Shown: in pieces, positions 1-64,000 of the stretch | Layout: every line of letters begins with the position of its first letter | How positions within the stretch are numbered: the first letter of the stretch is position 1 | NCBI GenBank assembly: GCA_003194525.1 | Contig: NBIV01000301.1 | Location: 1-64,000, forward strand | DNA from: Gracilariopsis chorda | Lineage: Eukaryota > Rhodophyta > Florideophyceae > Gracilariales > Gracilariaceae | Direction: 5' to 3' | DNA: 64,000 nt | Position numbers and translations under genes: made by a program | Notes under the pieces: model-generated | Database searches by the model: none | Told to the model about the DNA's origin: nothing | What the model saw: the letters and a program-made list of their open reading frames with translations, nothing else

Positions 1-810
1 TCAGGGAGGGATTCTGGTACTTGATCGTTTTCCCGATATTATCGGTTGTGTAGTGTGTATATGAACTACGCCCCACAATGGTGGGTATGGACACGTGGGA
101 CACGGTTTTGGGTCAATTGGCGGTTGGCCACAGTAGTGGATGTTGCCACGAAATGTGGAGTATTTTAGTTAATATTATTTATTATTTTCACACCCATTTC
201 TGGGAAGCTAGTACTTAGTGCGACGGCGCACTGCCGTCGCACCAGTAAACCTTCCCCAACAAGGGACCCCAACCTGGGGAATTGGCTCTAGTTGTTGCCG
301 CTTGCGCGCGTGCTCTACTCCTCCTTGGAGGGAAACGCCGTAAACCACGGGACATCTAACCCCCTTGCACATCTAAAGAAGCCCATCCTTGGGAGTATAA
401 TTGTTCCAATCACATTGGTGTTTCGCCCTGTATAGGGAGTCCTGTCACCGGCATTGCCGTATCTGTTCGTCGCTCTCGCGACTCACTTCGTCCTCTCTTC
501 CTCCTCTTCGCCCTTCCTTTTTCCCCTTTTTAGGGTAGCACCTCCCGCTATCCGCGGCCCTCGTGTGCGCATCCGCTCACACACCCCCACTTACGTGGAA
601 ACATACCTCTACTGAGGATCACACCCCGCTCACGCGGATACCGATTCTTCGCCTTCACCTCCCTGCGCGAGTCGCGACAGGTGTCCCTGGTCTTACAAAC
701 CGGCTTCGCCGTGACACCTCTGGGAGGGCTCTACCCAACTGGGTTCACCTCGTGAGAGGAAGATCCCGAACGTCTTTCGGTGTTTTTCCCCTTTGGGGCA
801 TTGCACCACA
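1..810 (+). repeat. 5' LTR of the chromovirus (left edge truncated by window)
   Basis: Matches 10847-11654 along its length. It ends TTGCACCACA just before the primer-binding site, giving the usual TG...CA termini. It is crowded with short hairpins, for example CCGAT-ATT-ATCGG at 33-45, CCCA-TCCT-TGGG at 382-393, GTCGC-TCTC-GCGAC at 469-482 and CCTC-GTGA-GAGG at 748-759. Confidence 0.9.
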
Positions 811-813
811 AAG

Positions 814-831
814 TGGTCTCCCGACCTAGAA
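814..831 (+). promoter_or_regulatory. Primer-binding site for minus-strand priming
   Basis: TGG follows the LTR end after three bases. The reverse complement reads as a tRNA 3' end: a T-arm-like GATTCTAGG, a seven-base acceptor strand, a discriminator base and CCA. The tRNA identity could not be named from sequence alone. Confidence 0.7.
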
Positions 832-916
832 TCGGTTTTTGTTTTCCCTCTTACGAGGTTTGTTTTTCATTCACCGGAAGTTCCGTGATCGTTTCCCGTC
901 GTAACGGTATTTTCTC

Positions 917-3088
917 ATGTCGAGAAATCCCTCCGATGCGGAGCCAGTGGTTACGCGTAGTCGCTCCCGCGACAACGCGGACACTTCCGAAGTTCGGTTC
1001 GTACCCCGTATCCCTATACGGACAAGTTCCAGCCGTGCTGGCGCCGCTTCATCGCGGAATGATACCCCGACCGGGAACCCCGGAACCTCCTTTTGCCCTC
1101 GTTATCACCCCCGCAGGGGAATGCAGCATCGACTCCGGCTGTTGCCGCAGTGCCCCAGGCACCCCGGCCTGCTCCCGCTGTCGCGGCTTCAAGCCCCCGT
1201 GGAACGGGCGATAACACCCCCCAGGGGACTTCCCTGGAATCCCAGGTCCGCGCTCTGTGGACCGCCCATGACACCCTTGTAGGGGAACTAAAATCCCTCC
1301 AAGAGGTGGTCTTGGCAACCCCCGTAAAGGAGGTTGCCGAGGAACTCCGTATTTTACGGTCTGACGTCAACTCCGTGTTGGAGAGTTTGGGACAACCCGC
1401 CACCTTCATCGAAGGAGTTGAAGCCCGATTTGATCGGATTGGTGCCCGCCTGGAGACGCTGGAGCAGTTCGTCCTCATGGACAAACCATCCCCGGATGAT
1501 CCGGTAAACGAGGCATCGCACAACGACCAGCTTGCTGGGAAGAAGAAACGCCGTCATCGACGGAAACACCACCGAAAATATTCGGACTCCGATTCTTCGA
1601 CATCGTCGGACTCATCCCGAAACCATTCGGTTAGCTCGAGCTCCTCGGACTCCGACTCGGAGGACGAGAAGCGAGGCTACTCCTCCCGCTCGAAGCGGTC
1701 ATCGGCCACTGAAGGTGTGGTCCGAACCCGCCAGAAGGGGAGAAGACACCCCGGTCTCCGGGAATTGAAACCGACAAACCCGGATTACCGGAAGCTTTTA
1801 TCATACCGGTACTACCGGCTCGAAGATTCGTCACTTGGACGTACGCCCCGTGGTACGGGAAAGGTGCGAGAATGCATTAAGCGAATGCAGCTCTCGCTCC
1901 GCAACCAGTATTTTACTGGAGAGGACCCAGTCCTAGTACTGGATTTCCTATCCCGCTTTGTAGCGGAGGCCGATATCCTCGGTATGAATGAGGGACAAGC
2001 CTATTTGGCTTTACCGTATTTCTTACGGGGAGTGGCGGAGGACCAATACAACTCTGTCAGAGGATCTTCTCGTGCCTCCGAGGGAGGGTTACTTGCTGGC
2101 CGGAGGCTGTGCAGTATCTTCTGCGCTCCTACGCCACAAACACCGCTATTCAGCAGGCTATCCTCGCTTTGCGAGATACACGCCAGCGTGCTGGAGAGAC
2201 CGAGACCGATTACTCGGTGCGCCTTAACAAGGCTTTCCACAGATGTGGTAACGTATACCCCGCTGGGGAGCGCAGTACCATGTTCATCGATGGTCTTGAC
2301 CCGGCAATCCGGAGTTTAGTTACCCGTTATCGGGAGGACAAGCGGAGGATCACCTATCTCGAGCTGGTCCAACACGCTCGAGCGGAAGGGGATGCACTTC
2401 GTGCAAGAACTCCGAACAATCGGTCTAAATCCGCCAAGGCGTTGTTGCTGGAAAGCGAAGCTTCCTCACTCCCGCTCACTGCGGATGGGAACCCTGGACA
2501 GGGATTTGATACCGTGCATTTAGTGCAGGGGATGGTGTGTCGATACCCACCAGTGATTTGCCGTCAACGACGGAGATGACCCGTGATACGGGAACGGAAG
2601 ACCCCGTTCTTATACGGTGGTAACAGTCGGGTTCAACCCCAACGACTCCCGTTTTCAAACGGTCAATCCCGTTATCAACGGCCTGGATGGACTGACACCC
2701 GCCCTGCGGTTCGCTTCTCCGATACTCGGAATAATAATCCGCGTGTCGCGGTATTGGCTCTCATTTGCCACCTGTGCTATGCCCATGGCCATACCTCCCT
2801 CAGTGTATTTGTTCACTGAAGGATATGGCCAAGGTGGTGGCAAATTATGAGGCCCTCACTCCAGAGGAGAAACGTTCCGTCCCGACGGCTTCCTACCTCC
2901 GTGCTAAAACGGACTTTTCCCATGCCCTACCACAGACCCCGCGTGCGCGGCAAGCTTCATACACCCCGATTCGGGAGATCACGCAACCATCCGTTGCAAC
3001 CCCCGCTTATGCGGATAGAAACCCCCGTCAACGGGATGAAGCACTCGTTGTCGAGGAAACCAACCCACCGCCGAAGGCGGAAAACTAA
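917..3088 (+). pseudogene. gag: Gag of the chromovirus, frameshifted
   Basis: Gag forms the particle around the element RNA. The first plausible ATG is at 917 (MSRNPSD), but the coding sense moves to another frame near 1085, again near 2085 and again within the zinc knuckle near 2800. Visible in order: a Pro/Ala-rich N-terminus, a coiled-coil-like stretch (about 1260-1480), a Lys/Arg then Ser/Asp-rich segment (about 1540-1700), a capsid-like helical region (about 1860-2420), and a CX2CX4HX4C zinc knuckle near 2768-2810 whose last Cys is in a shifted frame. The reading ends with TAA at 3086-3088, 18 bases before the next long frame. The assignment rests on position and the knuckle; capsid similarity was not tested. 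Confidence 0.7.
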
Positions 3089-3105
3089 CTGAGGGAGTCT
3101 CCCCT

Positions 3106-6100
3106 TTGGGAGAGGCGTCCTCAAGAACGAGGCTGTTGGCGCCCGAGGCGTCCTCGCCTCGCTCCCCGGTGAAAGTCCTCTCGAGGAAAGACACCGCTGA
3201 CGCGGACTCTGCGCACCTCGGTGTGTTGCGTCGCCCGTGGATACGGAGTAAAAATCCCCGGATTCCCGGTAGAGTCTTGGTCTTGGCCAAGCGCAATTAT
3301 AAGGTCTATGCCGACCTTGGCCTTGATCCCCAGTTTATGGTGAGGTTTCTCACCGTCCTGGATACAGGTGCAGGCCCCAACTTTGTTGTGGAATCATTGT
3401 TACCCCCGCTTGTGCGGTCTCGTATCCGCTCTGACGCGGTCCCCGACATTTCGGATGCGAACAACAATCCGTTACAAACGGTGGGCACAGTGGACCTCGT
3501 CGTGAGACTTGGTACCTCTGTGGTGAAGTTGGACTTCATCGTTTGCCGTTCATTGGCAGCACCAGTCATACTGGGATGTGATTACTGCGACAGATTTGTC
3601 GACGCAATCAGGCCCCGCCTCAGGCGTGTAGAACTTGACGACGGATCGTCGGTTCCGATTGTTCGCCGCCCGCTAAAGCGGTCCTCTCGGAAACAAGTTC
3701 CGCTCCCTGCTGCGCAGGAACCACCGCCCGCGTCCCGCGAGTCCACCAAGCTCCGCGTCGCTGCCTCGGTTTCTATACCGCCTGAGTCCCAAGTCTGGGT
3801 GCAGGTAAATTCCCGTCAACACGGTCTTCGGGTTATACAACCCCTCGCCTCGTTGTACGAGAAATCCCAGCTGGCGCTGGCTAATGGAATTGTCTCCATT
3901 TCCCCGGATGTTCCTTTCCGGATATTGGTTGCCAACCTTGGCAAACACCCCCAGTATCTGGTAAAACACCAAGTAATTGGGAGTGTAACCCCCCATCCTA
4001 TGGGAATGCTGCCAACGAAGATGACAGCCGCCGATGTACTCGGAGTTACCACCTCTTCTGAGGAGTTCGCCCCGCCGTCCGAAGACGTCAAGTCTAAGGA
4101 GGGGGAGGAAACCGCTACTTCAGCGTCGAACACACCGAGTAACTCGGAATTGCGAACCACACCTGTTCCACAGGACAATGCTCCATCGAGCAACGACCGG
4201 ATTGATCCGGAAAAGGCACTTGAAGCGCTGGACTTCAGCCACGTGCCAGAGTCGCACCGCGACAAACTCCGTACAATGTTACGGGAATTCACCACAATGT
4301 GGGATGGCTCGCTTGGCGAGATTAATGCAACGGAACACCGGATCGATTTAATCCCCGGTGCGCGACCGGTTGCACAACCCCCTTACAGGGCAGGTCCGAA
4401 AGCTCGGGAAGAGGAGCAGTCCCAAGTGGACAAGATGCTCCGCGCAGGTGTGATTGAGCCCGCTCAATCACCCTGGGCATCCCCAGTTGTACTGGCTTTA
4501 AAGGCCGACGGAACCTGGAGGTTCTGTGTCGACTACCGCCGGCTCAATGCCGTGACTGTTAGGGACACGTACCCTATCCCTCGTATGGACGAGTGTATTG
4601 ACTCCCTTGGAGACGCCACCGTGTTCACGGCCCTCGATGCCAATTGGGGATATTGGCAAGTACCTGTCAGACAGGAGGATCGCGACAAAACCGCATTCAC
4701 CTGCCACGCAGGAACGTACCGCTTCAAGCGGATGCCATTTGGGTTAACCAACGCCCCCGCCACCTTTCAGCGTGCAGTAGATATTCTACTCAACCGCTTT
4801 AAGTGGCGGAGTTGTCTGGTCTACCTTGATGATATTATCATCTTCTCCAACTCGTTGGACGACCATCTCACTCACGTCCGAGACGTGCTGACCGTACTCC
4901 GCGATGCGGGAATTACCCTCAAGTTGAGGAAATGCGAGTTTTTCACAGATACTGTGAAGTATCTGGGTCACATTATCCGTCCTGGACGGTTAGCGATCGA
5001 GAAAGCTCGAGTCAAATCCCTCGTTGAGGCGAAAGAGCCCCGTACTCAAACGGAACTGCGCTCCTTTTTGGGGCTGGTCAACGTCTATCGACGGTTTATC
5101 CCGAACTTTTCGGATACCGCGGCGCCCCTGAACGCGTTGTTGCGAAAGGGGAACCCCCAAAACTGGGAACATTTACGCCCGAGCAATCGGAAGCCTTTAA
5201 CTCCTTGAAGGAGGCTGTCACATCAGCACCAATCCTACATCTCCCAAAACTTGGGTTGCCATACTCCGTAGATACGGACTCGAGCGACTACCAAGTCGGG
5301 TGTGCTCTTTTTCAAACCACCCCCGAGGGGAACGACATCCAATTGGTTATTGGTCGCGCTCGCTCAATGTTCATGAGCGGAACTACTCCGTATCGGAGAA
5401 AGAGTGCCTCGCCGTCGTATGGGCGATGACCACTCTGCGCCCCTACCTTATGGGAGTTCACTTCACCGTGTACACGGATCATTCCTCATTGAGGTGGTTA
5501 ATGAATATCTCCGACCCGTCGGGACGCCTCATGCGCTGGAGACTCCGCCTCGCGGAATATGACTTTCAAGTCATTTATAAAAAGGGCGCGCAGAACACCC
5601 AAGCCGACGCCCTGTCGCGGTTACCCACAAGTGGGGAAGCACTCCCAACGGAGGATGATGAAGTCCCATGTTTCATGGCCATAGACCCGGATGATCCGGA
5701 ATGTGCCGTCGAGGCTGGGCCAGAAAACTGGGACGAGGATGCTGACTTTGACGAACTACTCGCATCGCGAGATGAATCTGAGAACCCGTTACCGGGAAAC
5801 TTTGTACCGGTATCACCGGAAGAAATGATCCGAGAACAATTCGGCGACCCATTCTGTACGAGGATTCGTGCCCGTCTTAACGGTGGTGAAGATCTCCCTT
5901 TCGGGGTAAACGACAAAGGCTACCTCGTAAGGAAGGTCGAAGCCCGCCCACAGATTGTGGTACCTCATTCCCTGCAGTCGCGGGTGTTACATCTATCACA
6001 CTACGCCCCCATTGGAGGTCACCCAGGTGGGAGGAAACTCTACCTAACCCTGCGAAGGGATTTCTATTGGCCCGCCATGGCGGTGGATTGCTACGCAACC

Positions 6101-8838
6101 GTGCGGTTTTGTAGCGAATGCGCGAAGAATCGCGTCAAACTCCGCAAAAATGCGAAGAAGATGAAACTATTCCCCGCAAGGGCGCCGCTCGAGTTTATCG
6201 CGATCGATATTCTCGGACCACTACTCACCACGAAACGTGGAAACAAGTTTCTACTTGTCATTACCGACCGCTTTTCTAAGCTGGTACGGACTGTCCCTCT
6301 TCGGAGGATAACCGCTCTCACGGTGGCCCAGGCTCTGGTGACGCACTGGATTTTCGTCTACGGTCCCCCTGTGGAGGTGCTCTCCGATAACGGGAAACAG
6401 TTCGTGAGCAAGTTCTTCCAGGATGTTTGTCGCATCCTGGATGTCAAGAACTTGTTCACGACTACCTACCACCCCCAGTGTAATGGGCAAGTTGAACGGT
6501 TTAACCGGACGTTACTCGCGGCGTTACGTTCCTACGTCGCAGACCACCCAAAGAACTGGGACATGTACGCTGATGCGGTAACCTACGCGTACAATACGCA
6601 GGTACACCGGACTACCGGAGTTTCGCCATTCGAGTTGGTTCTATCTAGAACACCCCCGCCTGTGGCGCTGGAACCCCAAGCTACCTTGGACAATTTCCCA
6701 TCAGTGGGTATCTACCGGCAGCAATGGAAGCAATGGCTTTCCAAGCTGGTCCCCGCTGCGCGGAAGTCTATGGCACGGGCCCAAGCCGCTTACAAGCGGG
6801 ATTTTGATGCTCGCTTGCGAGGGAAACCGTCCCCGATTCGGGCGAATAACTACATCTTCATCAGGAAGGAGTACTACAACCCGGAACGGGAGAAGCGCCA
6901 TAAACTCTCGCCTGTGGCGGATGGACCATTCAAGGTCATCTCTGTAAACACCGACACTGTCGTGGTAGAGATGGGCGACACGCACGAACGGATTTCCCGT
7001 GATCGTGTTGTCCTTGCCCCTCCTCCCTCGTCAGAGGTAGTCCTGGATCCAGGCAACCCCGTTTCTACGGACTCTGCAACACCGGAATCATCCGGGAGTA
7101 CTAGGCCTACGGTACTACCACACCCCAGCCGGGGACTCTCAGACCTACCGACCCTGTCGGACTCACCGGCTCAGCCGGGTAATTCGGGCCTCTCAGCGCC
7201 CGCCCCTACCACGCCCGCCCCACTGGCGCGCATTTATACCCGCCAGGCGGGGAATGTTATCCCTTATCCCGCCGCTCCGTCTAAGGAGGGGAGGAGAACA
7301 CTCGTTTTCGAGGAACGATATCGCCGTCGCAACGGGAAACACACCGTAACATACGGAACACTGACCGTGGAGCACGGAGTATGTCACGCGACACTAATCC
7401 CCGTTCTCGGGCAGTGCTGTGCAACAGGAACCAGACGCGCAGGCCCCGCAAAAGCGGCAAATACACCGTTTGTCACGGGAAAACGAGAAGCCTCCCTCCA
7501 ATACCGCAGCAGCGGAAATGCAATCGCCCGATCCATCCCCGGAGGCATCGCCACAAACGCGGGAAATATACCGTGCTACACGGGAAGTTGAAGCGCAACT
7601 ACCGCACACCCCTGTCAGGGAAGGATCCCCGATAAGGAGTATGGTGACGATTGCCCCCAATCCCCTGAGCAGAGCGATGCATCGAAGCCGCCATTGGCGG
7701 AAGCCCCCGCGGAAGGGTTCAATTAGGTCCAGCAGACCCGCGCCCGCGGAGAAGAGGCGTCCAGATACGCCAGCCTCACAGGGAAATACCCACACCCCTC
7801 TTGGGGAAAAAGGCAGCCAAGCCGCAGTCGAAGCTTCAGGCCTGGCGCGCAAGCGCCGGAAACGCCTCCCGTCGTTGACGGAATCGAAGCCCCCGCTCCG
7901 GGGAATAATTTGCGCCAACCCCGCAACGCTGCGGCGAAGAACCGAGGAACTCGGGAAAAACGCGCGCCATCGCACGCTCGAAACCGGTCGTACCGGACGC
8001 TGCTCCTCCTCATGGAGATGGTGCACCGCGCTTAGCGGCAATTCCCCTGAAAAGGGTGTCATCGGCACCTGCCCGGCACCCCCAAAGGGGAATTTTGACC
8101 AAAATACCGGTGTACCGGAGTTAGCCCCAGGCAACCCGTCAGTAACCGGGGACACCACGGCGTCGCCGGAACGTATGGTGCAGAGCGCTCGTGCACCTGG
8201 CAGGGAGGCGGAACGCTTACCAATCACCGTGTCGCACGGGACCCCGCAGGGGATGTCGCAAACGCCGTTCCCGCATACGCGGCAAGACCCCGCAAGCTCG
8301 CGGTTCGCGAAGAAGACCGCACTCGCGGAGTTCAAGTCCCCCGCGACTGGCGGTTCGCCCGGCCTACCGTGAAGACGGGAACAACGACACCCCTCTGGGG
8401 AATGACTTGCCGGTGAAAACCGTGACGCCACACACCCTCTTGAGGGATATTTTCCCGCATGAGCAGCGGCCACTAGGACAGCGCACGGCAACGCCGGAGA
8501 CATCGCCGACAACCCGGATGGGGGGCAACATACCGCACAGCGGGCAACCCTCGCAAGGGAGTAAAACCACCACCCGGCACGGCCGGCAGGTCTACGAACG
8601 AGAGTTCGTAGTAGACCGACTTGTCGGACACACCTGGGACCAGGATGGTATTCTACAATACCGCGTCCGCTGGTACGGGTATGACCCCAGTGGGATACGT
8701 GGGAGCCAATTGAACACCTCCCACGATCGCAGGTCGTGCGATACCACCGTCAAACGGGAACTGCAGCCCCAGCCACGCTGGTTAATGCCCAAGTCGGGTA
8801 ACGCTGCCGCGCGAGCGGAGGGCAGTAAGAAGGGATAG
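3106..8838 (+). pseudogene. pol: Pol polyprotein (PR-RT-RNase H-IN-chromodomain), frameshifted
   Basis: This copies the element RNA into DNA and inserts it. The first frame (3106-5208) holds the protease DTGA at 3361 and the RT with YLDD at 4822-4833. The sense changes frame near 5168 and near 5345; the latter frame runs to 7591 with RNase H, an HHCC zinc-binding region (about 5990-6130), the integrase catalytic Asp in IAIDILGP, Asp in LSDNG, Glu in GQVERFN, and a GPF-type C-terminal patch near 6925. A Pro/Arg-rich linker of roughly 500 codons follows in another frame (7419-8372). The last frame (8191-8838) ends in a chromodomain-like sequence (VYEREFVVDRL...YRVRWYGYDPSG) that slips frame again near 8693. 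Chromodomains of such integrases are known to read histone marks. Confidence 0.88.
8593..8765 (+). other. Chromodomain at integrase C-terminus
   Basis: YEREFVVDRLVGHTWD, then YRVRWYGYDPSG, then in a shifted frame DTWEPIEHLP, follows the chromodomain pattern: initial beta strand, aromatic RWYGY core, and WEP before the C-terminal helix. The frame slip falls between the core and WEP. This domain class binds methylated histone tails and steers chromovirus insertion towards heterochromatin. Confidence 0.8.
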
Positions 8839-8988
8839 CAAGGGAAAGTCCGTCCAAGACGGGGAATTCTAATTGGAAATCACCGTCCGAGACGGGAAAG
8901 TTTACCTAGTGGAGCAGCAAGCTCCATACTACACTACACTAACTGGCATAGCCAGGGAAAGAAGTACCAGGAAACTGGACTAGAGGTT

Positions 8989-10775
8989 TCACTCACTCCC
9001 ATCGTCCGGGGCGTAACCACCAGCGAGGCGGTACGCCAACGCGTCCGCCATAGTGGTGACATCCCCCGATACCTCGGCAGCGCTCAGACCGGCACCCCGG
9101 AGAAAACGTGCCATGATCTCGTTTTCATTCGCCGTCACCCCGCTGGGGATAGAAGGTCCGGCACTTGCCGCCGAAGGGTAAGCAGCCGGCTTGGCCGGAG
9201 ATAACCCCTCTGGGAAAGCTTCCGCGCTAGCGCCGGGTTCCTCTACGTCCATCTTCCCGGGTTCTTCCGGTTCGTTATCGACCATTGGGTCGTCCCCGCC
9301 GTATGCGCGGTAGTAGTCGTCAGAATCGACTTACCCAACAGGGTGGTCTTCCCGCACATGCCGGGGCGTATCGCGAAGCTCGCGCGCCTCCTCGGAGGAA
9401 ATTTCCCGGAACTCCCAGGGGTCGAAGTAGATAAAATCCCCCGCAAGGGCGGTGTTTCTACCGAGTCCCGGACCACCGGTGTTACCGCTGCCACCATCCA
9501 GACGACCGCTTTGCTCTAGCGGGACCTCACTCCAGCTAACGCTGTCGATGTACCCAAGTAATTGGAGGACCTCTTCATTGTTGGCCTGGCCCCCAAGGGG
9601 GATGCGAAGATCCAAATTGCGGATTGCTGCCCGCACACGCGGTGGGAGGAACCAGAGACGAAACTGGTCGTACGCCTCATTGAGGATATAAGCCGCAGCG
9701 CGGGCCGCCCACTCCGTAACCACTACGGACCACAACCCCGACCGGGGACCCTGCATTAGCAGCGAACCGAGGTAGGTAAGTACCGGCGGGAGTTCTATGT
9801 AGCACCCCCGGCAGGCTTCATGGAAGCGCCACCACTCGGGGAGTGCTACATACCGACCTAGTCGGTGAGGCGGCGCAATCCGCTCTATCTCCACGTTCTG
9901 ATACGGGATGAAATACCCGAATCGGGATCGCCAGCGCCACTCGTAGCGGATGAAGTTTTGGAGAAAGTTGGACCGGTATTGCCGGGGAAGATACCTGAAC
10001 TCCGCCCGAATAATCGGTCGCTCCCAACAAAGGGCTTCTTGCCGCGCTGCGTGGAAATTCCTCCAAGCGAGGGTCTCGAGGCGGAACCGGTTGTCGTCGT
10101 ATCCAATCTCCCCGCGAGTGCGGAAGTGGCTAACGTCGAAGCCGAACTCCGGTGGGACCGGTAAATCGAATGGAGCCCGGCTCTGCCGTTGGTATGCCAT
10201 GCGCGTCAACGCGGTCTGCGCCGCAGCGACGGTCTCGCCCGAAATCCTTCGGAGGTGGTGACGCGGAATCGCAATCCGGTGACGCCATTCCCACGATGTG
10301 GTGACTGCTCTGGGCGGATCCCCCGGAAGGGTGTCTGAGCCATCCGCATAAGCGGTGACCAATCCCTCATTGAGGACAGCGATCGGGTGAAACCACGGGG
10401 CAAGGCTGCGCGCGACGCGTGATTCCGATTCATCGGGTTGAGCCCCACCAGGGTGTTGTAGGTTGGCCAGTTGAACGCCGGAGCTGTTCCGGAGGACACC
10501 ACCGAAGGTGGTAGTGCGAAGGGATGGTTGGCTGCAGCAGCCATATTCCCCGGTTGTACCGGATGTCGATCGCCCTGAGGCAGAGGAACTGACCGGAAAC
10601 CGGTGGTGTATCGCCCGAGAGGCCTCGGAGGTTGGCTGTTAAGGTTGATGTTGTTGTCGTTGTTCATTTCTCCCTTTTTGAGGGTGGCTGTTGTTGTTGT
10701 TTGTGCGCTCGATGACTCTGGTGCAGAGGGATTTACCGAAGAACCGGAGACAGAGCACGCGCTTTTATCACCCAT
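8989..10775 (-). CDS. Extra antisense ORF between pol and 3' LTR, unknown function
   Basis: Read on -, it starts with ATG at 10775, 57 bases from the 3' LTR. Its N-terminal part is Ser/Thr/Asn/Pro-rich (10775 to about 10440). The sense then moves to a second frame (10362-9331, 343 codons) rich in Trp, Arg and Tyr with an FDPWEF motif near its end. A TAA at 9331-9333 interrupts; the same frame continues to 8989 with an acidic, Ala/Pro-rich tail (VEEPGAS...YAPDDGSE). The stop lies within GGGTAAGT, which resembles a 5' splice donor, so a short intron is possible. No signal peptide or membrane segment is evident and I recognise no family. Antisense extra ORFs at this position are known in some plant Ty3/gypsy lineages. 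Confidence 0.55.
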
Positions 10776-10818
10776 TTTCGTCTGGGAATCCTCCGCGTCC
10801 GCGGTCGTTTTCCCGTCT

Positions 10819-10831
10819 TAGGGGGGGGATA
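10819..10831 (+). promoter_or_regulatory. Polypurine tract
   Basis: A run of A and eight G followed by ATA sits directly before the LTR start TGAAGTGC at 10832. This is the expected plus-strand primer location. Confidence 0.75.
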
Positions 10832-11654
10832 TGAAGTGCAACGCCCTCAGGGAGGGATTCCTGGTACTTGATCGCTTTCCCGATATTATCGGTTGTGTAG
10901 TGTGTATATGAACTACGCCTCACAATTGTGGGTATGGACACGTGGGACACCGTTTTGGGTCAATTGGCGGTTGGCCACAGTAGTGGATGTTGCCACGAAA
11001 TGTGGAGCATTTTAGTTATTATTATTTATTATTTTCACACCCATTTCTGGGAAGCTAGTACTTAGTGCGACGGCGCACTGCCGTCGCACCAGTAAACCTT
11101 CCCGAACAAGGGACCCCAACCTGGGGAATTGGCTCTAGTTGTTACCGCTTGCGCGCGTGCTCTACTCCTCCTTGGAGGGAAACGCCGTAAACCATGGGAC
11201 ATCTAACCCCCTTGCAAATCTAAAGAGGCCCATCCTTGGGAGTATAATTGTTCCAATTGCATTGGTGTTTCGCCCTGTATAGGGATATTGTTACCGGCAT
11301 CGCCGTTCGTCCCCGTCGCTCTCGCGACTCACTTCGTCCTCTCTTCCTCCTCTTCGCCCTTCCTTTTTCCCCTTTTTAGGGTAGCACCTCCCGCTATCCG
11401 CGGCCCTCGTGTGCGCATCCGCTCACACACCCCCACTTACGTGGAAACATACCTCTACTGAGGATCACACCCCGCTCACGCGGATACCGATTCTTCGCCT
11501 TCACCTCCCTGCGCAAGTCGCAACAGGTGTCTCTGGTCTTACAAACCGGCTTCTCCATAACACCTCTGGGAGGGCTCTACCCAACTGGGTTCACCTCGTG
11601 AGAGGAAGATCCCGGACGTCTTTCGGTGTTTTTCCCCTTTGGGCATTGCACCAC
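10832..11654 (+). repeat. 3' LTR of the chromovirus
   Basis: An 823-bp TGAAGTGC...CACCACA repeat matching 1-810. Substitutions relative to the 5' LTR often fall in hairpin loops (CCAAT-CAC-ATTGG becomes CCAAT-TGC-ATTGG), though some break stems (CGGC-TTC-GCCG is lost). The flank after it is TATAC; the partner target-site copy would be left of the window. Confidence 0.93.
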
Positions 11655-45599: not shown

Positions 45600-48500
45600 T
45601 CAAATCCAAGTTATGAAGTGGTACTGTAGACGATGTATACTGATTTGCAAACTCCGGAACACATTTATTAGTGACGTCGAGCTCCGAGTTTCGCCTAGCG
45701 TCAGGTTGTACCTCGTAGCTGACGGAAGAGTGAATCGTTTATAAGGAAACAGATTCAGCACTGCCGCATTTTTTTCATATCCCAACTGCTTTGTGGATGC
45801 AGTGAGCATTTTGCTGAGATCTACATCCTCCTTTCGTCGTGTTGCGAGCCACATTCGCAGGATTTAGTAAGCGTTTTGCATGTGAGCGGTAGATTTGAGA
45901 GGTAGTGGAGAGTTCTTGGATTTTGGGTTGCGTGCAATAGAACGTAACGGCGACGCAAATGATGGATAATCGGCTTGGCGTACTTGTTCGGTGAGGAACA
46001 GCACTTAAACCCAGTACAATTTCTACAGATCACTCTCTACGGCACCTCCTTGACAATTTTTGTGTACAATCGTATCACATTTTTACTCTGACCAGCCTCC
46101 ATGTATATCTGCGGCACGACTGGAAGCAACTGGGAGTAATCACCGGATATAATGATCGCCAATTTCCAAACGGAGGCGGTTTTTCCATTTAACTGCAGCG
46201 AAGATCTTTGAGCAACGCATTTATGAGTTTGAAGAGCTTTTGTGAGAGCTTGGACGCCTCATCCAAGAAGAGCAGTTGTAATTCACGTAGCCGTTCCGCA
46301 CATTGAGATTGGGGACCGTACGTTGACAAAGTGGCTATATTGTTGCTTGTGCTGTCCCTATCAGCTACATCCAGTCCAAGCAGGCTATCTAAAGCTCGGC
46401 CCCCTTCGTAAAACGAAGCTTCAATGCCTGTTGTAGCGTTCATTTCGTCGAGCATTCCTTCCGACTAAGCGATATCGCGAAGGAGGTTGAGCACGTATGT
46501 CTTTGCGGTTCCTGCAGATCCTTGCACAAAGAAAACCTTTTCAGGAGTGCTTGTTCGCTCCTGCAGCGCCTGTCGTTGTTGAAATGCAGCAATGGAGGTG
46601 TCAATGACTTTTCTATGGCGAGGTTTTATGGTAGCGTACCTTGACTGCAACGATGACGCATTTCGTACCACTCACGCGTCTCGAGCTTTTATAGCTCGAT
46701 TCGCCTCAGTCAATGCTCCATTATTCTGCTGTAGCGGTTAGGAGAAGAAGCTGTGACTGTGGAGCAGTCGTGCACTGTGCCGGTCTGAGATCTCCACCAC
46801 ATGTCGATACATTTCTTGCTTTCGTTGCTGCTCATCACGTGTATGTATGTCGCTACATAGCGCCTCTCGCTTACCGACAGCCATTATCTCTCGATCTGCG
46901 CATTTTTGGTATAATGTGACAACCAGACATCGTAGCTCGGAGAGCATGCTGTAGATCTGCATTGATTCTTGAAACGTAATATCAAACTCGGTTCCGTCCG
47001 CGAGCAGTACGCTTGCAATCGCCATTTCACGATAGTTTCCATACTGCTGTCTGTTGAAATTCCTTGCTTCTTCATAAGAGCTCAAGCCGTGATTCATGAG
47101 CACCAAGCAAAGAGCAAACAGCTCAATGTCAGACGGTGAAATAACTCTGATCCTTGCGACGCAGTGCTCGTCTTCCGTGCGCTATACCACGTACATGGGC
47201 GGATCGCAGTCGTCTGCATGCACCTGAGTGCTGTTGCCGTCGTGTTGATTAAACACACGTGCAGAAAGCGTGCGATACAAATGTACCTTTTCAGAATAAG
47301 AAAGGTAGTCGAGGTTTGCATAGCTTCGGGCCTGGCAAATTATCTCTCCAGAGTAGACGGCTGCCATGCAGAAAGGAGCTGGTTTGGATCTCTCAGCAGA
47401 AATTTCTGCTCTCCTTCCAAGTAAATGGCCAGTCGCTGTACTTCAGGTACAATTATAACATGGCGAGACTAACAAGTTCTCCAAGCTGCGTTGACAGCGC
47501 CCACCACACGCGCTTGCATGTATGCACGAATGTCTTTCTGCACCTGCGGCTCTTGTTACTGCTTGTTCTACGTGCCTGTCTCAGTAGCACCACTCACTTT
47601 GAGCCCCACCTCGTGAGCTTTGGGCTGCTTAAAGGCGTACTTCATCAGATAGGCCACTGCGCCCCCTCTTTGCGCGCGTTCTATGTTGATATGGGAGCGG
47701 TACTTCTTGGTCAGAGTTGGGTTGTACGACACAATCTCGATGTCTTCTTGCCTTCTTCTGCGATAGGTCACGGGATTCAAGCCTTCTTCAATGTATGTCT
47801 CCGGCACAATCATGTTGCTGACGTATCCAAACTTGCACCGGCCAGCGCGATTCCAGCAATAGGAGGAGTGGCAGTGCCTGTGCATGGAACGAATGAGGTC
47901 ACGCAACGCGTTATGTTCACCGGGAAGGGGTAATTATGCACGAATCAGCTCGTCGAACACGTGATCGTCTTCAATCACACCGCCTTCAAGCCACACGACC
48001 ATGTGGTGATGAGGCACATTGTGTTCTTGAAACTCAAGCTTTGATGCAAGCCCAAGGCACTTCATTCCAAACATGTGCTTCGATTTCTTCTCCAAATCCT
48101 TCATGAATTCATTTTCGTACTGTTTGTACACCTTTGCAATCAGATCCGGTCGGTCAAATGGCCGAGGGCGCTTACTCTGTGCAGTAAATGCGCCACGATT
48201 GGTGGTGTCCATCCCAAGGGGCTGGATGTACTCTCGCCAGATGTTCATGGTGATTATAATGAACAGAGAAGGCGGTCCTCTCCACGCCACGATCGCCTGT
48301 TTATCCATGCGGTTGTTCTTCTTGTAAGCTGCTGAGTTGACCGAGTCATCGGGCAGAAAGATCCGTCCCATTTGTGCTAGTCGGGATGGTGACATGTGAC
48401 CTGTTTGCTGTTGTGCTTGCTGGATCTCTTGCTCTTTTACAATGCGTTCCTGGCATTCTCTCTCCAGAAAACGCAGTTTTAGTGCAACGCCCCGAAGCGG

Positions 48501-50149
48501 GAGCGCACCGAAAGACGTTCGGGATCTTTCCTCGTTAGAGGTGAGCCCAGTTGGGTAGAGCTCTCCCAGGAGTGGCACGACTATGTCGGGTTGTAAGGCC
48601 AAGGTCACACGTCGCGACTTGCGCAGGGAGGTTGAGGCAAGAATCGGGTATCCGCAGGAGCGGTGTATGGGGGTGGTCGTCCTCTAGAGAGGTGACGCTT
48701 CCAGGTTAGTGGCACGCGCGAACACGAGCCGTGGGTAGCGGGAAAGCCAACCTGTAAAGGGAAAGATAAGGGGGAGCTGAGTCACGAGTGTCGTGACGAA
48801 GACTAACGGCAGTGCCAGTAAATAAACCTTATACATGGCGAACACCAAGAAAGCTGGAATAACAATCCGAATACTCGGGTCCTTTAGATAGGCAAGGGAG
48901 TTAGACTTCCCTTATGTGACGGTGCTTCCCTCCAAAGTGGAGTAGAGAACACGCGAAGGTGGTGAGGTCTAGAGCCAATTCCCCAGGTTGGGGTCCCTTG
49001 TTGGGGAAGGTTTACTGGTGCGACGGCCCGCCGGCGCATTATGTACTAACCATCCCAGGCATGGGTGTAAAATAATAAATAGAATTAACTAATTTAATCC
49101 ACTTTGGTGGTTCATGCCCACTACTGTGGCCAACCGCCAATTGACTATTCCATGTCCCACGTGTCAAATCCACTATTAGTGGTCGTAGTTCATGCAATGA
49201 CTACATTACCGAAACATTCGGGAAATTAATCAAGTACCAAGAATCCCTCTCTGAGGGCACTGCACTTCAGCAGTCGCATGTCCTCAATGTTTGTGTGGGT
49301 GCGAAGCATCCACATCTGCATCAACAGTCCACTGTTCCGAAAGATGTTGTCTGACTACAGTCGTCTCTTCGCGTTTTCAGCCCAGGTGAGCTTTCGAAGC
49401 TCCCACTCGTTGACGCTGAGACATGAGCTCTGCTGTGTAGAGTTCCGTGCGTCCACAAACAAGCCGATCTCAAACAGTTCCTGCTGATCGCCGTACGGGT
49501 AGAGAAGAGGGAATGTGCCCTTCTCTGCAAGTTTGGATGACGGTCTTAGAAGTCGGTACCGAACTTGCGCATTGTTTGTGGCAGTCGCAGTCGCCCCTGA
49601 TCCAGCAGCAGCAGTACTCGTCACTGCAGCGTGCTCTTTGGTTACGGTTCCTTCTACCAAGCCCGGTACTTGAGCCTCCACTCGTTACTAACCAGTCGGA
49701 TCAACCACGAGCGTTTTCATCATGGTTGGAGCCACACCAGGAAGATCTTCAGGGAGAGGTTCAGCACCTGCATGAGGAGCACAGACTGTAGCACTTCGGG
49801 TTCCTTCATATCCACGTACGACTAATCTTTGTTCCGCTGCTTGCACGCTGATATCCACGGTGGTCTCTGCATTTTGGTTTTGTTGTGGCTGTTGCGTGTT
49901 ATGCATATACCGGTAACGTTCGCGCACCACGTCTGGCTTCGGATGGATCACATCGTACAACTTGGGTACGATGTCTCTTAAGTTGATGTCCTGAATGAAC
50001 GCACGCAGATTGGCACGCGCATAGTGAGATAGATCCAATAAAGGCTGACCGGTACCCCACAAAAAGCTGTAGTGCGTGCTGTTCTGGTTCTGCGTGGGCA
50101 GAGCTAGAGCTGCGTTGCCTTCAATATGAGAAAGGAGGGACCGGACCAC
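45600..50149 (-). pseudogene. Helitron Rep-helicase, copy 1, fragmented
   Basis: Pieces in order on -: NAALALPTQNQNSTHYSFLWG (50149-49688); GTFPLLYPYGD (49681-49355); solo LTR; GPPSLFIIITMNIWRE and the HUH-like VPHHHMVVWLEGG (48460-47934); CKFGYVSNMIVPETYIEEG (47906-47568); helicase pieces with GSAGTAKTYVLNLLRD, whose Walker A reads GSAGTAKT instead of GSAGTGKT (46671-46465), and LLFLDEASKLSQKLFELI-like text (46455-46189); a C-terminal shred (45854-45600). Many frameshifts and the altered P-loop show it is dead. Confidence 0.75.
48478..49269 (-). repeat. Solo LTR of a diverged subfamily of the hairpin-rich chromovirus
   Basis: Read on -, it starts TGAAGTGC and aligns along its length with the LTRs at 1-810 and 10832-11654, but is clearly diverged. 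GCAGT flanks both sides (48473-48477 and 49270-49274), a 5-bp target duplication. Helitron copy 2 has the matching empty site near 57428. Only the LTR remains, as after recombination between two LTRs. Confidence 0.93.
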
Positions 50150-51845: not shown

Positions 51846-52022
51846 CTCTTATGGGTAGCTGCACACGAGCTCGGCCTTGCCTAAGTCTCAGGCCAGAAAC
51901 AGTACCTGAAGTAGCAAAAGGTTACAACACTGCGTTATTTGCCAAGCCTGAAATGGGAGGTGCACATACTGTCTAGATTGAGCAAGGGATATGCTTTTGG
52001 CACTGCGCCATTGCAGTATATA
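51846..52022. repeat. Upstream module of Helitron-like element, copy 1
   Basis: Matches 60311-60482 and 61643-61815: CACACGAGCTCGGCCTTGCC, AGTAGCAAAAGGTTACAACA, CCTGAAATGGGAGG, ending CACTGCGCCATTGCAGTATATA, which has a TATA-like end. Three copies in one window suggest tandem or independent duplication of an element end. Confidence 0.7.
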
Positions 52023-52242
52023 CGTCTGTGGCAGGCATGTTTGCAATGCAATTTCAGCATACACTGCAGTGATGCACCGCAACCTGCCACATGTCGCCAT
52101 GAACAGCCGGGTTTTGCTGCTGAGTGGCTGGCACCACAATGTGATTGTTTTGAGAGCCGTTCAGTAGCCATTGCACAGTCAACATGCGGCAAAAGCTAGT
52201 ACACTGAACGCTTTGCTGCTGCTGCTGACTTTGACTCTCTTT

Positions 52243-52329
52243 GTTGGTAGGGAGGCCTTGCGTCAAATGGGCGTTTTGCATGCGCAAACGGGTGCGTGCA
52301 AAACAATTTTGTGATGCAACGCCTCACAT
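52243..52329. repeat. Hairpin module GGAGGC...GCAACGCCTC, diverged copy
   Basis: Aligns with the perfect inverted repeat at 60744-60819, with several substitutions, preceded by the same CTTTGCTGCTGCTG run. Confidence 0.55.
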
Positions 52330-52330
52330 C

Positions 52331-53050
52331 AGTCTACAACACGCCCCTTTTACGCATGTAATGCTTAAGAGTGGAGTGTTCAAATAGGGTAAACAGAGAT
52401 TTTTACGTTATCTATAAAAAAATGTCTTTAAAAGCTCAAAATGTAAGCGCAGAACTACTTTTCGGCTTCGCAGTAAAAGAATATTTTCTACAGAAAAGTA
52501 TGTCAAGTACCTAGATTAATAAAATTTGCTAGGAGTGTTTAGAAAGCGTTAAAAAATTATTGTCATTGTTAGTTTACCAGTATCATATGTTTTTTGCTTT
52601 AAAAGCTGTCATGAAGGCTTCTATTTTTATCAAATTTAAACCTACCTAACTTTGGTTTTCTAATCCGCGTTAAAAGTGTCTGCGCTTGATAAAACTTTCA
52701 AATAACAGAGCGTGTAGCAGTCACATTACATATATTACAAAGCATCTACGATTGTCTGAGGAACCTAAAATTCTTTGTAGATTACAGATTGTAGAATGGA
52801 AATGTGTTGAAAGCAAGCACCATGAGTTAGTAATTGGATTAAAGTTTTTGGCATTTTTCTGGCCCCATTTGAGGTCAGCCAGCCGATTGGATAGACACTA
52901 GTCCTTGACATTTACCCGAAAACCTGCAAGATCTCGAATCTAAGAGCATCTCTATCAAAGACCCAAATACCTAAATATTTGGTTCCGATCCCAGAACGCA
53001 TTTCTACCAAGTCCTTAAAACGTAACAAGGGTAAGAAGGGCCTTAGGCCG
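52331..53050. other. AT-rich gene-poor stretch
   Basis: No domain recognised in the short frames here. Confidence 0.4.
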
Positions 53051-53245
53051 TACCACTCTTTCCTGCATTTGTGACTTCTGCATCTTTCCTGCAGAAAAGA
53101 GTGGTAGCGCCGCCCTACCAAACTTTCCTGAAGTTGTGATGTCTGCATTTTGCCTGCAGGAAAGAGTGGTAGGGCCTCCATACCATTTTTTCTTGCAGTT
53201 GTGACGTCTGCATATTGCATGCAGGAAAGAGTGATAGGGCCGGAG
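53051..53245. repeat. Three 65-bp tandem units, each palindromic
   Basis: Units start at 53051, 53116 and 53181, each beginning TACCA. In unit 1, ACCACTCTTTCCTGCA and CTGCAGAAAAGAGTGGT are inverted, so each unit can fold on itself. 65 is not a multiple of three, so the array is not a coding repeat. Confidence 0.85.
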
Positions 53246-53466
53246 CTTCAGCGGTGACAAACCTGAGAATGAAACGTTTTGGTTGTACAAAACGTTTGAT
53301 TATCATTGGTGCAAAGAGTTGGCGTACCAAAACGCTCAAAACATGAACGTGAAGCACGATTTTGGTTGCTGGCGCAGTTTGCACCAAAAAAACGAAATCG
53401 TGCATTTTACTAATTTTTTAAGGGGTGCGAAGGTCGTTGTCGCACAAATCCTTTGTTAGGTTAGAC

Positions 53467-53640
53467 AAGTGGAAACGGCCTTCGGCCGTGGGCGGCGCTG
53501 CGCGCCACGTCGTTTTTGTAGCTTTGTGTATTTAGTAGCGTTCGGAGGCTCTCCGAGCACTTTGCTCGCTTGCGCTCGCAATAGCACTCGTAGAACCACG
53601 GGGCGCGGCGGCGCCTAGAGTAAGTAAAGCCGTAGGGGTT
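53467..53640. repeat. Direct repeat flanking Helitron copy 2 (left)
   Basis: Matches 61467-61642: GTGGAAACGGCCTTCGGCCG, TTTAGTAGCGTT, GGAGGCTCTCCGAGCACTTT, TAGAACCACGGGGCGC. It contains the GC hairpin CGGCC-TT-CGGCCG. Confidence 0.75.
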
Positions 53641-53799
53641 TGTGTTTAGGTGCCTAAATTGACTGCAGTGCCATCCAATGATGAGAAAACGCGACACGTT
53701 GCTTTCTGTAACTGGGTGGCACTGCAGTCATTATGGGAGTGCCAGCCACTAGGCAGAAAGCTTTGCTGCTGCTGCTGCTGCTGAAGTTTTTAAATGGTA

Positions 53800-53876
53800 G
53801 GGAAGCGTTGCGCCAAATGGCAGTTTTGCATGCCCGTAGAGGGGCATACAGGGCGGTTTATTGGCGCACCGCCTCC
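53800..53876. repeat. Hairpin module, left-side copy
   Basis: GGGAAGCGTTGCGCCAAA and TTGGCGCACCGCCTCC are inverted with two changes from the perfect copy at 60744-60819. A GCTGCTGCTG run precedes it. Confidence 0.7.
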
Positions 53877-54076
53877 ATTCAATCAAGAACACCCCCTCAT
53901 ACATGAACAAATACTTATAGTGGAGAGAAAAGAGGAAGCGGCCTTCGGCCGCGGGCGGCGCTTTGCGCCGCGGTTGAGGATTTATAAACAGCGGTGAGAA
54001 GAAAAAATGGGTGAAGAAAGCAAAAGCAGAAAGGCAAGTAGTTTAATTCAGTGAATCAAGAACGCAAGAAATATGA

Positions 54077-61815: not shown

Positions 61816-62117
61816 GCGCAACGCCTCCCGTCAATCAACAACACCCCCCTCATACATGTGTAAATCATTAAGAGTGGGGTGGTGTTGAGATTTTGATTGC
61901 GACCTACACTTCAAGCCTATTTAGCCGGATGTTTAGGTTGCAACCTAAACTGAAAGACCAAACGCGTTGCGCCAAGTTTTTGCCAAGTGTGCCACTGTGC
62001 ACTGGTTGTAATTCGCGCCATTTTAAGACCAGAACAATCGCTTTAAGATAACCTTAAAACTGATTGCGTCAACAGTTGTCTCGCGAAGTCCAGGCCTTGA
62101 GTGTCGCAGTTCCAAAG

Positions 62118-62288
62118 ATGAAGAACTCACGAGGTGCCAACTTCACTCCTCATGAAGATCTAGCTCTTTGCAGAGCATGGATCTCTGCAGAGAGTTTTAG
62201 CTTAAGACTGCAAGTCAAAAGGGTTGCTTGCATAATCGCCGTTCATGAAACTGTTTCTGGCGACATTTTTGGCTTTGGCAATCGCTGA
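62118..62288 (+). pseudogene. Myb/SANT-like accessory protein fragment of a DNA transposon
   Basis: MKNSRGANFTPHEDLALCRAWISAES resembles the start of the Myb/trihelix-like proteins encoded beside PIF/Harbinger transposases (pattern NFT-x-EED-x-LCRAW). After about 26 residues the similarity stops and the frame ends at 62288. No transposase is seen next to it. Confidence 0.4.
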
Positions 62289-62754
62289 TAGTCAGATGGG
62301 CAGTCAGGCCATATTTAGAAATTTGGCAAGTTTCAGATATACTTTTAGGTGTGTTGATAGAGATGCTCTAACCTTGTTATATAGTTTTGTTATGGGCCAT
62401 AATAGAGCGAATTTGCAAGGCTTTAGCGAGAGCGGTTCTGACGGTACTAAGTCATTTTCATGCACCAGGCTTGTGTGTAGGAGACCCGCGATCTCGCAAC
62501 AGCGGGGTTGGATGATATTTACACTCTATAGCGCCAAAAAGTTTTCATTATTTCGCTTCGTACACAGAACCTTTGAAAGAATCAATCTGCTTTAAGACTT
62601 TTGGAATACTTGGTTTGCCGGCCAGGCGTTTCTTTCTCTCATTCGAGAGTATCCTTAGTTTTCATCGTGAGAGTCGGGAGATGTTGCGACTTCGTTTCGC
62701 GCCATCGCAAAAGTTGCTCTTTGCGTCTCGAAGTAGCCTGGTAAAACTATCAGG
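62289..62754. other. No gene recognised
   Basis: Overlapping frames at 62245-62595 and 62573-62923 (+) show no domain; the latter lies over a copia LTR. Confidence 0.4.
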
Positions 62755-63059
62755 TGAACATTATATATCTAAGAAAGTATGGGAGCGGTCGTGGGGGAAA
62801 TTAAACGACAGAATCCACTGCTGCTTCAGTTCAGTCTTTTTACAGGTTGACGAATCAGCTTATCGCTTATCTTCACTCACAAGACAACCAGAATGGTTCT
62901 TATATAGTCCTCGAGGGACGTAGTGCGAACAGAATATCTTCTAGATATCATCAGCGCACATGACAATTCAATCTAACGAGATAACTGTAAACAGAATGTA
63001 TAGAATGTAAATAAGCATGTAAACAATTCACTCATGCAAACAATTCACTATTAACATCA
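62755..63059 (-). repeat. Probable copia 3' LTR
   Basis: On -, it starts TGATGTTAATAG directly after a purine tract (ATGAGGGGAAG, 63060-63070) that follows the pol stop. A TATA box (ACTATATAAG on -) lies near 62905. The other end is set tentatively at TGTTCA (62755). Confidence 0.6.
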
Positions 63060-63071
63060 CTTCCCCTCATT

Positions 63072-63899
63072 CTAGACAGTCTCTTTCATGTCAAGACCCA
63101 TACCACGGCAATGATTATTGTGAGTGGCAGCATCAACTGGTTTCGTTAATATATCTGCAGTCATGACATGTGTCTCAACGTATTCCAAACAAACATCTCC
63201 TCGTTTCACATGGTCGCGAAGAAAATGGTACCGAATATCTATGTGCTTCGTACGTTCACTGCACACCGTGTCGGTGCTTAGACGGATTGCTCCTTGATTA
63301 TCACAACCAATTACCATACCTTTCTCGGCCCAAAGTCCAAGTTCAATCATAAGTGAACGGGGCCAAAGAGCTCCTCGTACTGTATTAGAGACGGAGACAT
63401 ATTCAGCTTCAACTGTAGACTGCGCCACAAGAGATTGCTTCTTCGACCGCCAGCTAACAGCTGCATCAGAGTTGATAAACACGAAACCTGCAGCTGACTT
63501 ACGGTCGGTGGTATCACCTGCAAAATCAGAATCAGAAAACCCTTTCATACTGTCAACACGTTGGACAAACATTAAGCCTACATCTTTGGTGCCCTTCAGA
63601 TACCTCAAAACCCGTTTCGCAGCCCTCCAATGTTGTTCACCAAAGGTATCCATGAAGCGGCTTAGATAGCTGACAGATAATGCAATATCTGGTCGACAAT
63701 TGTTCGAGAGGTATATCAGAGCGCCAACAAGTTCCTTGTACGGAAGGCCTCTTACTTCTTCATCCCGCACTCCATCCAACGCATAGTGTAAGATCATGGC
63801 AGTCTTCACCGGTGCACAAGATTGCATGCCAAACTGATCCAAAACGTGAGCGATCATGCTCGCATTATGAACCTTCAATGTGCCATCTGTGCCACGAAC
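63072..63899 (-). pseudogene. Copia pol C-terminus (RT end and RNase H), cut by LTR insertion
   Basis: On -: KVHNASMIAHVLDQFGMQ and GLPYKELVGALIYLSNNCRPDIALSVSYLSRFM (end of copia RT and connection), then RNase H: GFSDSDFAGDTTDRKSAAGFVF, SLVAQSTVEAEYVSVS, CDNQGAI, KHIDIRYHFLRDHV and ADILTKP, to the stop at 63072. Asp, Glu and Asp catalytic positions are present and the frame is open throughout. The upstream pol is displaced by an LTR at 63900. Until that insertion the copy looks intact here. Confidence 0.93.
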
Positions 63900-64000
63900 T
63901 GAAGTGCAACGCCCTCAGGGAGGGATTCTGGGTACTTGAACGCTTTCCCGATATTATCGGTTGTGTAGTGTGTATATGAACTACGCCCCACAATGGTGGG
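63900..64000 (+). repeat. LTR of another chromovirus copy, start only
   Basis: TGAAGTGCAACGCCCTCAGG at 63900 matches the LTR start at 10832 and then window position 1 onwards, keeping the CCGAT/ATCGG and CCCAC/GTGGG hairpins. It begins abruptly inside copia RT sequence and runs off the window. Confidence 0.93.

What the first reader, a model, noticed from the sequence alone, without database searches (positions are those of the whole stretch)
1..11654. A retrotransposon built almost entirely of tiny hairpins
Directly visible: short perfect inverted repeats every few tens of bases in LTRs, leader, gag, RT, integrase, linker and antisense ORF. In 4580-4675, inside the RT core, five hairpins fall within 96 bases; in 3883-3944 at least two lie within 62 bases. 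Many follow CCnn-loop-nnGG. They cross reading frames and ignore domain borders, so they are not a protein-level repeat. The neighbouring gypsy element, LINE and host genes lack this density by eye. Candidate explanations: genome-scale ordered RNA structure (packaging, protection from nucleases or small RNAs), protein-binding stems, or repeated quasipalindrome correction by template switching during reverse transcription. I know of no described LTR element with this architecture.
Basis: seen in the sequence. Interest (0 to 1): 0.92.

Follow-up and report, generated by a model that had tools for sequence, protein, structure and literature searches.

The report
Red-alga retrotransposon studded with mini-hairpins
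A jumping gene of a red alga, and a group of its close relatives, carry a tiny stem-loop about every 30 bases from end to end, and selection appears to preserve these stems in the family that could be tested best, which suggests that the element's RNA is covered with repeated docking or shielding structures.

Summary
Element 1-11650, a Ty3/gypsy-type LTR element of a red alga, has 2.4 times the dinucleotide-shuffle expectation of short stems; synonymous-codon shuffles give z 10-13 in gag, RT and IN, against 1.8 and -0.5 in the gypsy and LINE neighbours. A further pair is favoured only if it closes a loop of at least 3 nt, so the geometry is that of a folded strand. Stems are mostly perfect, 4-5 bp, capped, and start CC and end GG (154 seen, 12.4 expected). 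In 30 genomic copies, variants private to one copy strike stems normally, while variants shared by copies avoid them (rate ratio 0.27 in 2400-5600). A second family (27 copies, low power) did not repeat this. All 18 sampled members of one clade are enriched, one probably from another organism; nine outgroup sequences are not. Positions turn over, and covariation between families does not exceed control. Template-switch correction fits badly. Likely function, inferred: binding units on the element's RNA (Gag or a host protein), or shielding from the host's RNAi. Closest known: genome-scale ordered RNA structure of RNA viruses.

The parts
1..11650 (+). Ty3/gypsy-type LTR retrotransposon (family A); the contig begins inside its 5' LTR. 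Hairpins throughout: 374 non-overlapping stems >=4 bp with loops 3-5 counted in 1-11654
1..805 (+). 5' LTR (first bases missing at contig start); 96% identical to the 3' LTR; end read by eye
10837..11650 (+). 3' LTR, ends TGCAA...TTGCA, preceded by a G run (perhaps the polypurine tract); ends read by eye
917..2319 (+). gag-like region (by position), in this copy in two overlapping frames (905-1282 and 1063-2319); basic and serine-rich stretch; no Pfam match over cut-off
3040..5208 (+). ORF with reverse transcriptase (PF00078, E 6.9e-37)
5201..7591 (+). ORF with RNase H and integrase (PF17917, PF17921, PF00665)
8146..8838 (+). ORF with a chromodomain-like end (PF00385, E 2.9e-4, below the curated cut-off)
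9331..10638 (-). antisense ORF; 82 of 97 scored genomic matches show no stop (97 of 1991 candidates scored), open frame most often 609 aa; relative in Gracilariopsis chorda at 61%; hairpins here too
4663..4675 (+). example hairpin CCTGT-CAG-ACAGG in the RT coding region
3992..4004 (+). example hairpin CCCAT-CCT-ATGGG
48483..49264 (-). diverged LTR of the same clade (75% identical), itself hairpin-rich; 8 of 23 hairpins with changed stems are still centred at the same place (2.95 expected by shift, up to 9 in single shifts)
   Evidence: ends placed by hand from the alignment

Best explanation
The element carries an end-to-end array of minimal stem-loops: an unpaired flank, a perfect 4-5 bp stem that in family A mostly begins CC and ends GG, and a 3-5 nt loop. 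Shown here: the excess, its folded-strand geometry, the cap on stem length, the end motif, its restriction (in the sample) to one clade, and avoidance of stem sites by variants shared between copies of family A. Inferred: the stems form in the element's RNA and each is a binding unit for a protein, most likely the element's own Gag, so that many redundant contacts collect and condense the genomic RNA into particles. Redundancy would explain why density is kept while positions move; a cognate protein would explain the fixed stem end and the different end preference of other families.
For: P(next inner pair is Watson-Crick | 3 outer pairs) is 0.23-0.25 if it would close a loop of 0-2 nt, 0.53, 0.50, 0.50 for loops 3, 4, 5, then falls; families C, E, F and L061 show the same jump, D a weak one. 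CC..GG ends 12-fold but GG..CC 1.5-fold, although the two stack alike (recalled), so stability alone does not choose the end. The stem is capped: a fifth pair outside CC in 20 of 214, a sixth in 3 of 83. In six RNA phages the chance of a further pair stays 0.37-0.48 at every length; in element A it goes 0.53, 0.33, 0.18, 0.20 (and 4 of 6 for the eighth); in families C-F 0.40, 0.24, 0.16. Shared variants avoid stems in 30 copies (2400-5600: 10 variants over 998 stem sites v 81 over 2201, p 8.6e-6; CC stems 3 over 528 v 88 over 2671) while single-copy variants do not (ratio 1.07). Gaps under 4 nt between hairpins are rare and 6-12 nt favoured in A. End preference differs between families: A and E CC, C (A/C/T)C, D C(C/G), F (T/C)C. 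Folding z by 120-nt windows: + strand -1.50, - strand -1.06; gypsy, LINE and host -0.60 to +0.14 on either strand.
Against: No protein has been shown to bind. In family C (27 copies) shared variants do not avoid 4-bp stems (10 over 736 sites v 38 over 2747; only 48 shared variants). Between families, double changes at stem pairs are Watson-Crick in 175 of 403, in pseudo-stems 126 of 324: no clear covariation; between L001 and L007 in 5700-6700 only 3 of 18 changed hairpins are still centred in place, 2.21 by shift. The spacing preference is absent in the pooled other families. Family A shows no G-T excess over A-C, so sense-RNA folding is not proved; the + over - strand difference is within error in each region with 80-nt windows, and folding is weak in the antisense ORF. 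Loop composition reverses in the antisense ORF (p 0.01 and 0.03), which a purely genomic-RNA role would not predict. With L007 as reference two of five pseudo-stem controls over the whole piece also fell to 0.48 (p 0.0005 and 0.086).
Confidence: 0.42

Rival explanations
1. Shielding, as proposed for the genome-scale ordered RNA structure of persistent RNA viruses: hairpins keep the RNA inaccessible to siRNA-loaded Argonaute or nucleases, while the cap at 5 bp keeps them invisible to Dicer and passable for ribosome and RT.
For: The host has 2 near-complete Piwi-domain matches and two large open frames each with a pair of RNase III domains. Only 17% of 21-nt windows in element A are free of hairpin, 64% in a host stretch and in the gypsy neighbour. 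Turnover of positions and depletion of recurrent but not single variants at paired sites match what PMC7642675 reports for coronaviruses (abstract and passages).
Against: The CC..GG end is not explained by stability, nor is the avoidance of gaps under 4 nt in family A. No small-RNA data were available.
Confidence: 0.33
2. Hairpins act in DNA: in single-stranded cDNA during reverse transcription, or as extruded hairpins in the integrated copy.
For: Strict Watson-Crick pairing without a wobble excess in family A; the arms read the same on both strands.
Against: Families C-F show a G-T excess on the sense strand (k=5: 110 v 78.2; A-C 119 v 100.2); RNA phages show hardly more G-T than A-C (1.28 v 1.27 at k=5, 1.84 v 1.67 at k=6), so the lack of wobble does not exclude RNA. 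Loops are T-rich and G-poor on the coding strand of gag-pol. Private variants of integrated copies show no constraint.
Confidence: 0.12
3. Mutational origin: repeated quasipalindrome correction by template switching in reverse transcription.
For: Would give perfect short inverted repeats with small loops; arms are perfect. Two single-copy two-sided Watson-Crick changes were seen in 2400-5600.
Against: Stems are capped and end in a motif. Copying one arm to the other should leave many two-sided changes: in 2400-5600 none is shared between copies; all shared ones lie beyond 6100, where subfamilies diverge. Other LTR elements with RT in the same genome lack the pattern.
Confidence: 0.04
4. Artefact of base or codon composition or of local repeats.
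For: GC is higher in the element (0.54-0.60) than in most of the window.
Against: Dinucleotide and synonymous-codon shuffles, loop-length and mirror controls, minimum-loop rule; the noncoding LTR and leader share it.
Confidence: 0.01

Closest known systems
Genome-scale ordered RNA structure (GORS) of positive-strand RNA viruses (PMC7642675, abstract and passages seen)
   Same: Hundreds of consecutive stem-loops through coding sequence, pairings poorly conserved between relatives, paired sites spared by recurrent but not by single variants, raised folding energy difference (14.2% on the + strand here; about 15% reported for SARS-CoV-2, by another method, so only roughly comparable).
   Different: It sits in an LTR retrotransposon; stems are uniform, capped at 4-5 bp, with a CC/GG end motif, and cover the LTRs too.
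Dispersed packaging signals of RNA viruses and HBV (PMC6281560, passages seen)
   Same: Many short stem-loops with a shared recognition feature, redundant and dispersed.
   Different: For MS2 the passages place the motif in the loop and a bulge, and the sites number tens (recalled); here hundreds, with the common feature at the stem base. No binding protein is known here.
Ty3 and Ty1 genomic RNA structure (PMC11381356, passages seen; others seen in the listing only)
   Same: LTR element RNA folds and is packaged by Gag.
   Different: The passages I saw speak of particular folded regions, a well-folded core and pseudoknots, not of a uniform hairpin array.
RNA phages MS2, PP7, GA, Qbeta, SP, fr (sequences tested here)
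   Same: Excess of small hairpins (1.4-2.0 times at loops 3-6).
   Different: Weaker, and extends to long stems without a cap; element A reaches 4.1 times and is capped.

Membership tests
Ty3/gypsy LTR retrotransposon | two LTRs, RT-RNaseH-integrase order | tested here: met
Ty3/gypsy LTR retrotransposon | chromodomain (chromovirus branch) | tested here: inconclusive
   PF00385 at E 2.9e-4, 21.2 bits, cut-off 25.1, in a separate frame
GORS | folding energy below shuffled controls along the whole genome | tested here: met
   MFED 14.2% (+), 10.5% (-); gypsy 6.2/3.8, LINE -1.7/0.4, host 3.0/-1.3; but weak in the antisense ORF (z -0.2 on both strands)
GORS | paired sites spared by recurrent variants | tested here: met
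   family A met; family C not, at low power
GORS | pairings not conserved in position between relatives | tested here: met
GORS | structure formed in the RNA in cells | not testable with these tools
   needs chemical probing
Dispersed packaging signals | shared recognition feature across sites | tested here: met
   CC..GG stem ends and cap in family A; that anything recognises them is inferred
Dispersed packaging signals | binding by the capsid protein | not testable with these tools
   none
Quasipalindrome correction | two-sided templated changes | tested here: not met
   none shared between copies in 2400-5600, two in single copies

The most novel reading that the evidence does not exclude
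A clade of retrotransposons has turned its whole transcript into an array of uniform, length-capped stem-loops whose stem end is a family-specific code read by the element's own RNA-binding protein, so that each family recognises its own RNA by hundreds of weak, movable marks instead of one packaging signal.
Probability: 0.3. Interest if true: 0.92.

Novelty: new variant of a known kind. Interest (0 to 1): 0.82.

Why it matters
Genome-wide RNA structure is known from RNA viruses but described there as functionally uncharacterised (PMC7642675 abstract); my searches found no LTR element with such an array. Here it is more uniform than in the RNA phages tested, is confined in my sample to one clade with unenriched relatives in the same genome, and exists in many copies, so its purpose can be tested by comparing families and by synonymous disruption in reporters. 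In family A it also adds constraint at all three codon positions, which ordinary protein analysis would misread.

Tried and rejected
alignment of copies without reorienting minus-strand loci; discarded, redone. Wobble test as proof or disproof of RNA: undecided, since RNA phages also show hardly more G-T than A-C. 20-nt periodicity: z about 4 in family A, but z of about 4 at other periods in the control stretches, and no spacing preference in other families; not claimed. L083 seemed a distant hairpin-rich element; its hairpins lie at 34-1066, outside its AT-rich RT, in what I take for a clade LTR from its GC and hairpins. Viral contigs gave no relative. Rfam at gathering threshold and ARAGORN found nothing in the window. 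Cross-family covariation was not above control.

Full report
WHAT IS THERE. The stretch 1-11650 is a Ty3/gypsy-type LTR retrotransposon: LTRs 96% identical at 1-805 and 10837-11650 (ends read by eye), RT, RNase H and integrase domains, a chromodomain match below cut-off, and an antisense ORF at 9331-10638(-). The contig begins inside the 5' LTR. Among named protein relatives are Agarophyton chilense (RT, 67% over 71% of the query) and, for the antisense ORF, Gracilariopsis chorda (61%), so the host is most likely a red alga; the species was not identified. At least 40 copies match the RT stretch at 98% or more (40 of 1271 candidates were scored).

ANATOMY. The excess peaks at loops 3 and 4. 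Given three outer pairs, the next pair is Watson-Crick at chance level if it would close 0-2 nt and at about 0.5 if it would close 3-5 nt. That is the steric rule for a folded single strand; recognition of double-stranded palindromes or codon effects would not be expected to produce it. In family A 303 of 423 maximal stems begin with C; CC-ended hairpins are 154 against 12.4 expected, GG-ended 15 against 10.1. With CC/GG ends and pairs 3 and 5 fixed, pair 4 is Watson-Crick in 80 of 85 and G-T or T-G in 1. Stems stop: 20 of 214 CC-ended 4-bp stems have a fifth outer pair and 3 of 83 5-bp ones a sixth, background 0.24. Of 400 greedy non-overlapping hairpins (loops 3-6) 369 have 4-5 bp. Six RNA phages used as a yardstick show a weaker excess and no such cap. 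Loops of gag-pol are T-rich and G-poor on the coding strand; in the antisense ORF the bias reverses (p 0.01 and 0.03), but flanking bases do not clearly follow, so this is weak.

CONSTRAINT. In 30 copies of a piece of up to 4.3 kb (the loci returned, of 40 scored matches), variants seen in one copy strike stems as often as the rest (ratio 1.05), variants shared by copies half as often (0.49; CC stems 0.35). Five pseudo-stem controls with loops 12-32 gave shared ratios 0.75-1.14 with L001 as reference; with L007 0.48-1.14, one of the two at 0.48 with p 0.0005. Copies are mosaic: beyond 5650 two subfamilies differ by 14-25%. Restricting to 2400-5600 strengthens the result: 10 variants over 998 stem sites v 81 over 2201 (ratio 0.27, p 8.6e-6), CC stems 0.17; L007 and L024 as reference give 0.24 and 0.35; nine pseudo-stem controls there lie at 0.56-1.15, none significant. 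In 5650-6700 the ratios are 0.73-0.84 for all stems and 0.52-0.58 for CC stems. The effect is seen at each of the three codon positions and in the stretches left unframed. Family C, 27 copies, gave 10 over 736 v 38 over 2747, no difference; 5-bp stems 1 over 288 v 47 over 3195, not significant. I read this as purifying selection in copies that still move, with one family tested well and one inconclusive. Repeated arm-to-arm correction would also spare stems, but should leave two-sided changes; in 2400-5600 none is shared and two are in single copies.

TURNOVER. Between representatives of five families at 63-72% nucleotide identity most hairpins lie elsewhere. Centres coincide more often than the shift mean in ten of ten pairs and above every shift in four (A-D, A-E, A-F, D-F; for example A-F 20 v 6.3), weakly in others (C-D 3 v 2.1); double changes are Watson-Crick in 175 of 403 against 126 of 324 in pseudo-stems. 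Counting only hairpins with changed stems, none of six family pairs exceeds every shift, nor do L001 and L007 in 5700-6700 (3 of 18, 2.21 by shift); between the 5' LTR and the diverged LTR at 48483-49264 8 of 23 are still centred in place, 2.95 by shift but up to 9 in single shifts. Density is kept, positions are not.

DISTRIBUTION. Of 28 RT sequences compared, the 18 in one clade (support 0.92) have ratios 1.90-4.64; nine others 0.83-1.25; L083 reads 1.95 because of hairpins outside its RT. A further 22 copies of the clade families among L037-L060, and L002-L030, were measured and lie at 2.55-4.50. L061 comes from a contig filed under a bacterial MAG and is probably from another alga; L062, the next branch, is at 1.22 near RT and 1.36 over the contig. 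The families were taken from the best RVT_1 matches of one genome and one scan of genome contigs, not at random.

HOW IT MAY WORK. Shown: folded-strand geometry, cap, end motif, constraint in family A, clade restriction in the sample. Inferred: that it acts in RNA and that a protein reads it. The end motif and the cap argue for a recognised unit, hence the docking model (0.42); the dense cover, the turnover and the host's Argonaute-like and Dicer-like genes argue for shielding (0.33). Both may hold. DNA-level action is less likely (0.12), copying by template switch unlikely (0.04).

KNOWN OR NEW. It works like genome-scale ordered RNA structure (PMC7642675, abstract and passages) and may work like dispersed packaging signals (PMC6281560, passages). 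Searches for such an array in LTR elements or red algae found no description (open-access papers only, mostly listings). I file it as a new variant of a known kind.

Noticed in passing
window 9331-10638 (-): Antisense ORF conserved in the family: 97 of 1991 candidates scored, 82 of 97 without a stop, open frame most often 609 aa; relative in Gracilariopsis chorda (617 aa, 61%), which has no Pfam match. Function unknown.
   Followed up: partly
window 5650-6700 against L007: Copies of family A are mosaic: 96-100% identical before about 5650, 75-86% after, as if subfamilies recombined.
   Followed up: partly
G000 contigs C483, C648, C777, C944: Broken Piwi-domain fragments repeat at a spacing of about 8.0 kb, as if an Argonaute fragment were part of a tandem or mobile unit.
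   Followed up: no
window 48483-49264 (-): Diverged LTR of the same clade inside the window.
   Followed up: yes
window 52001-54000 and 62001-64000: Mild stem excess (1.51 and 1.60) without an excess of CC ends to speak of (0 and 2), unexplained.
   Followed up: no
L083:1-1070: A hairpin-rich, GC-rich stretch, probably a clade LTR, lies directly beside an AT-rich gypsy RT.
   Followed up: partly
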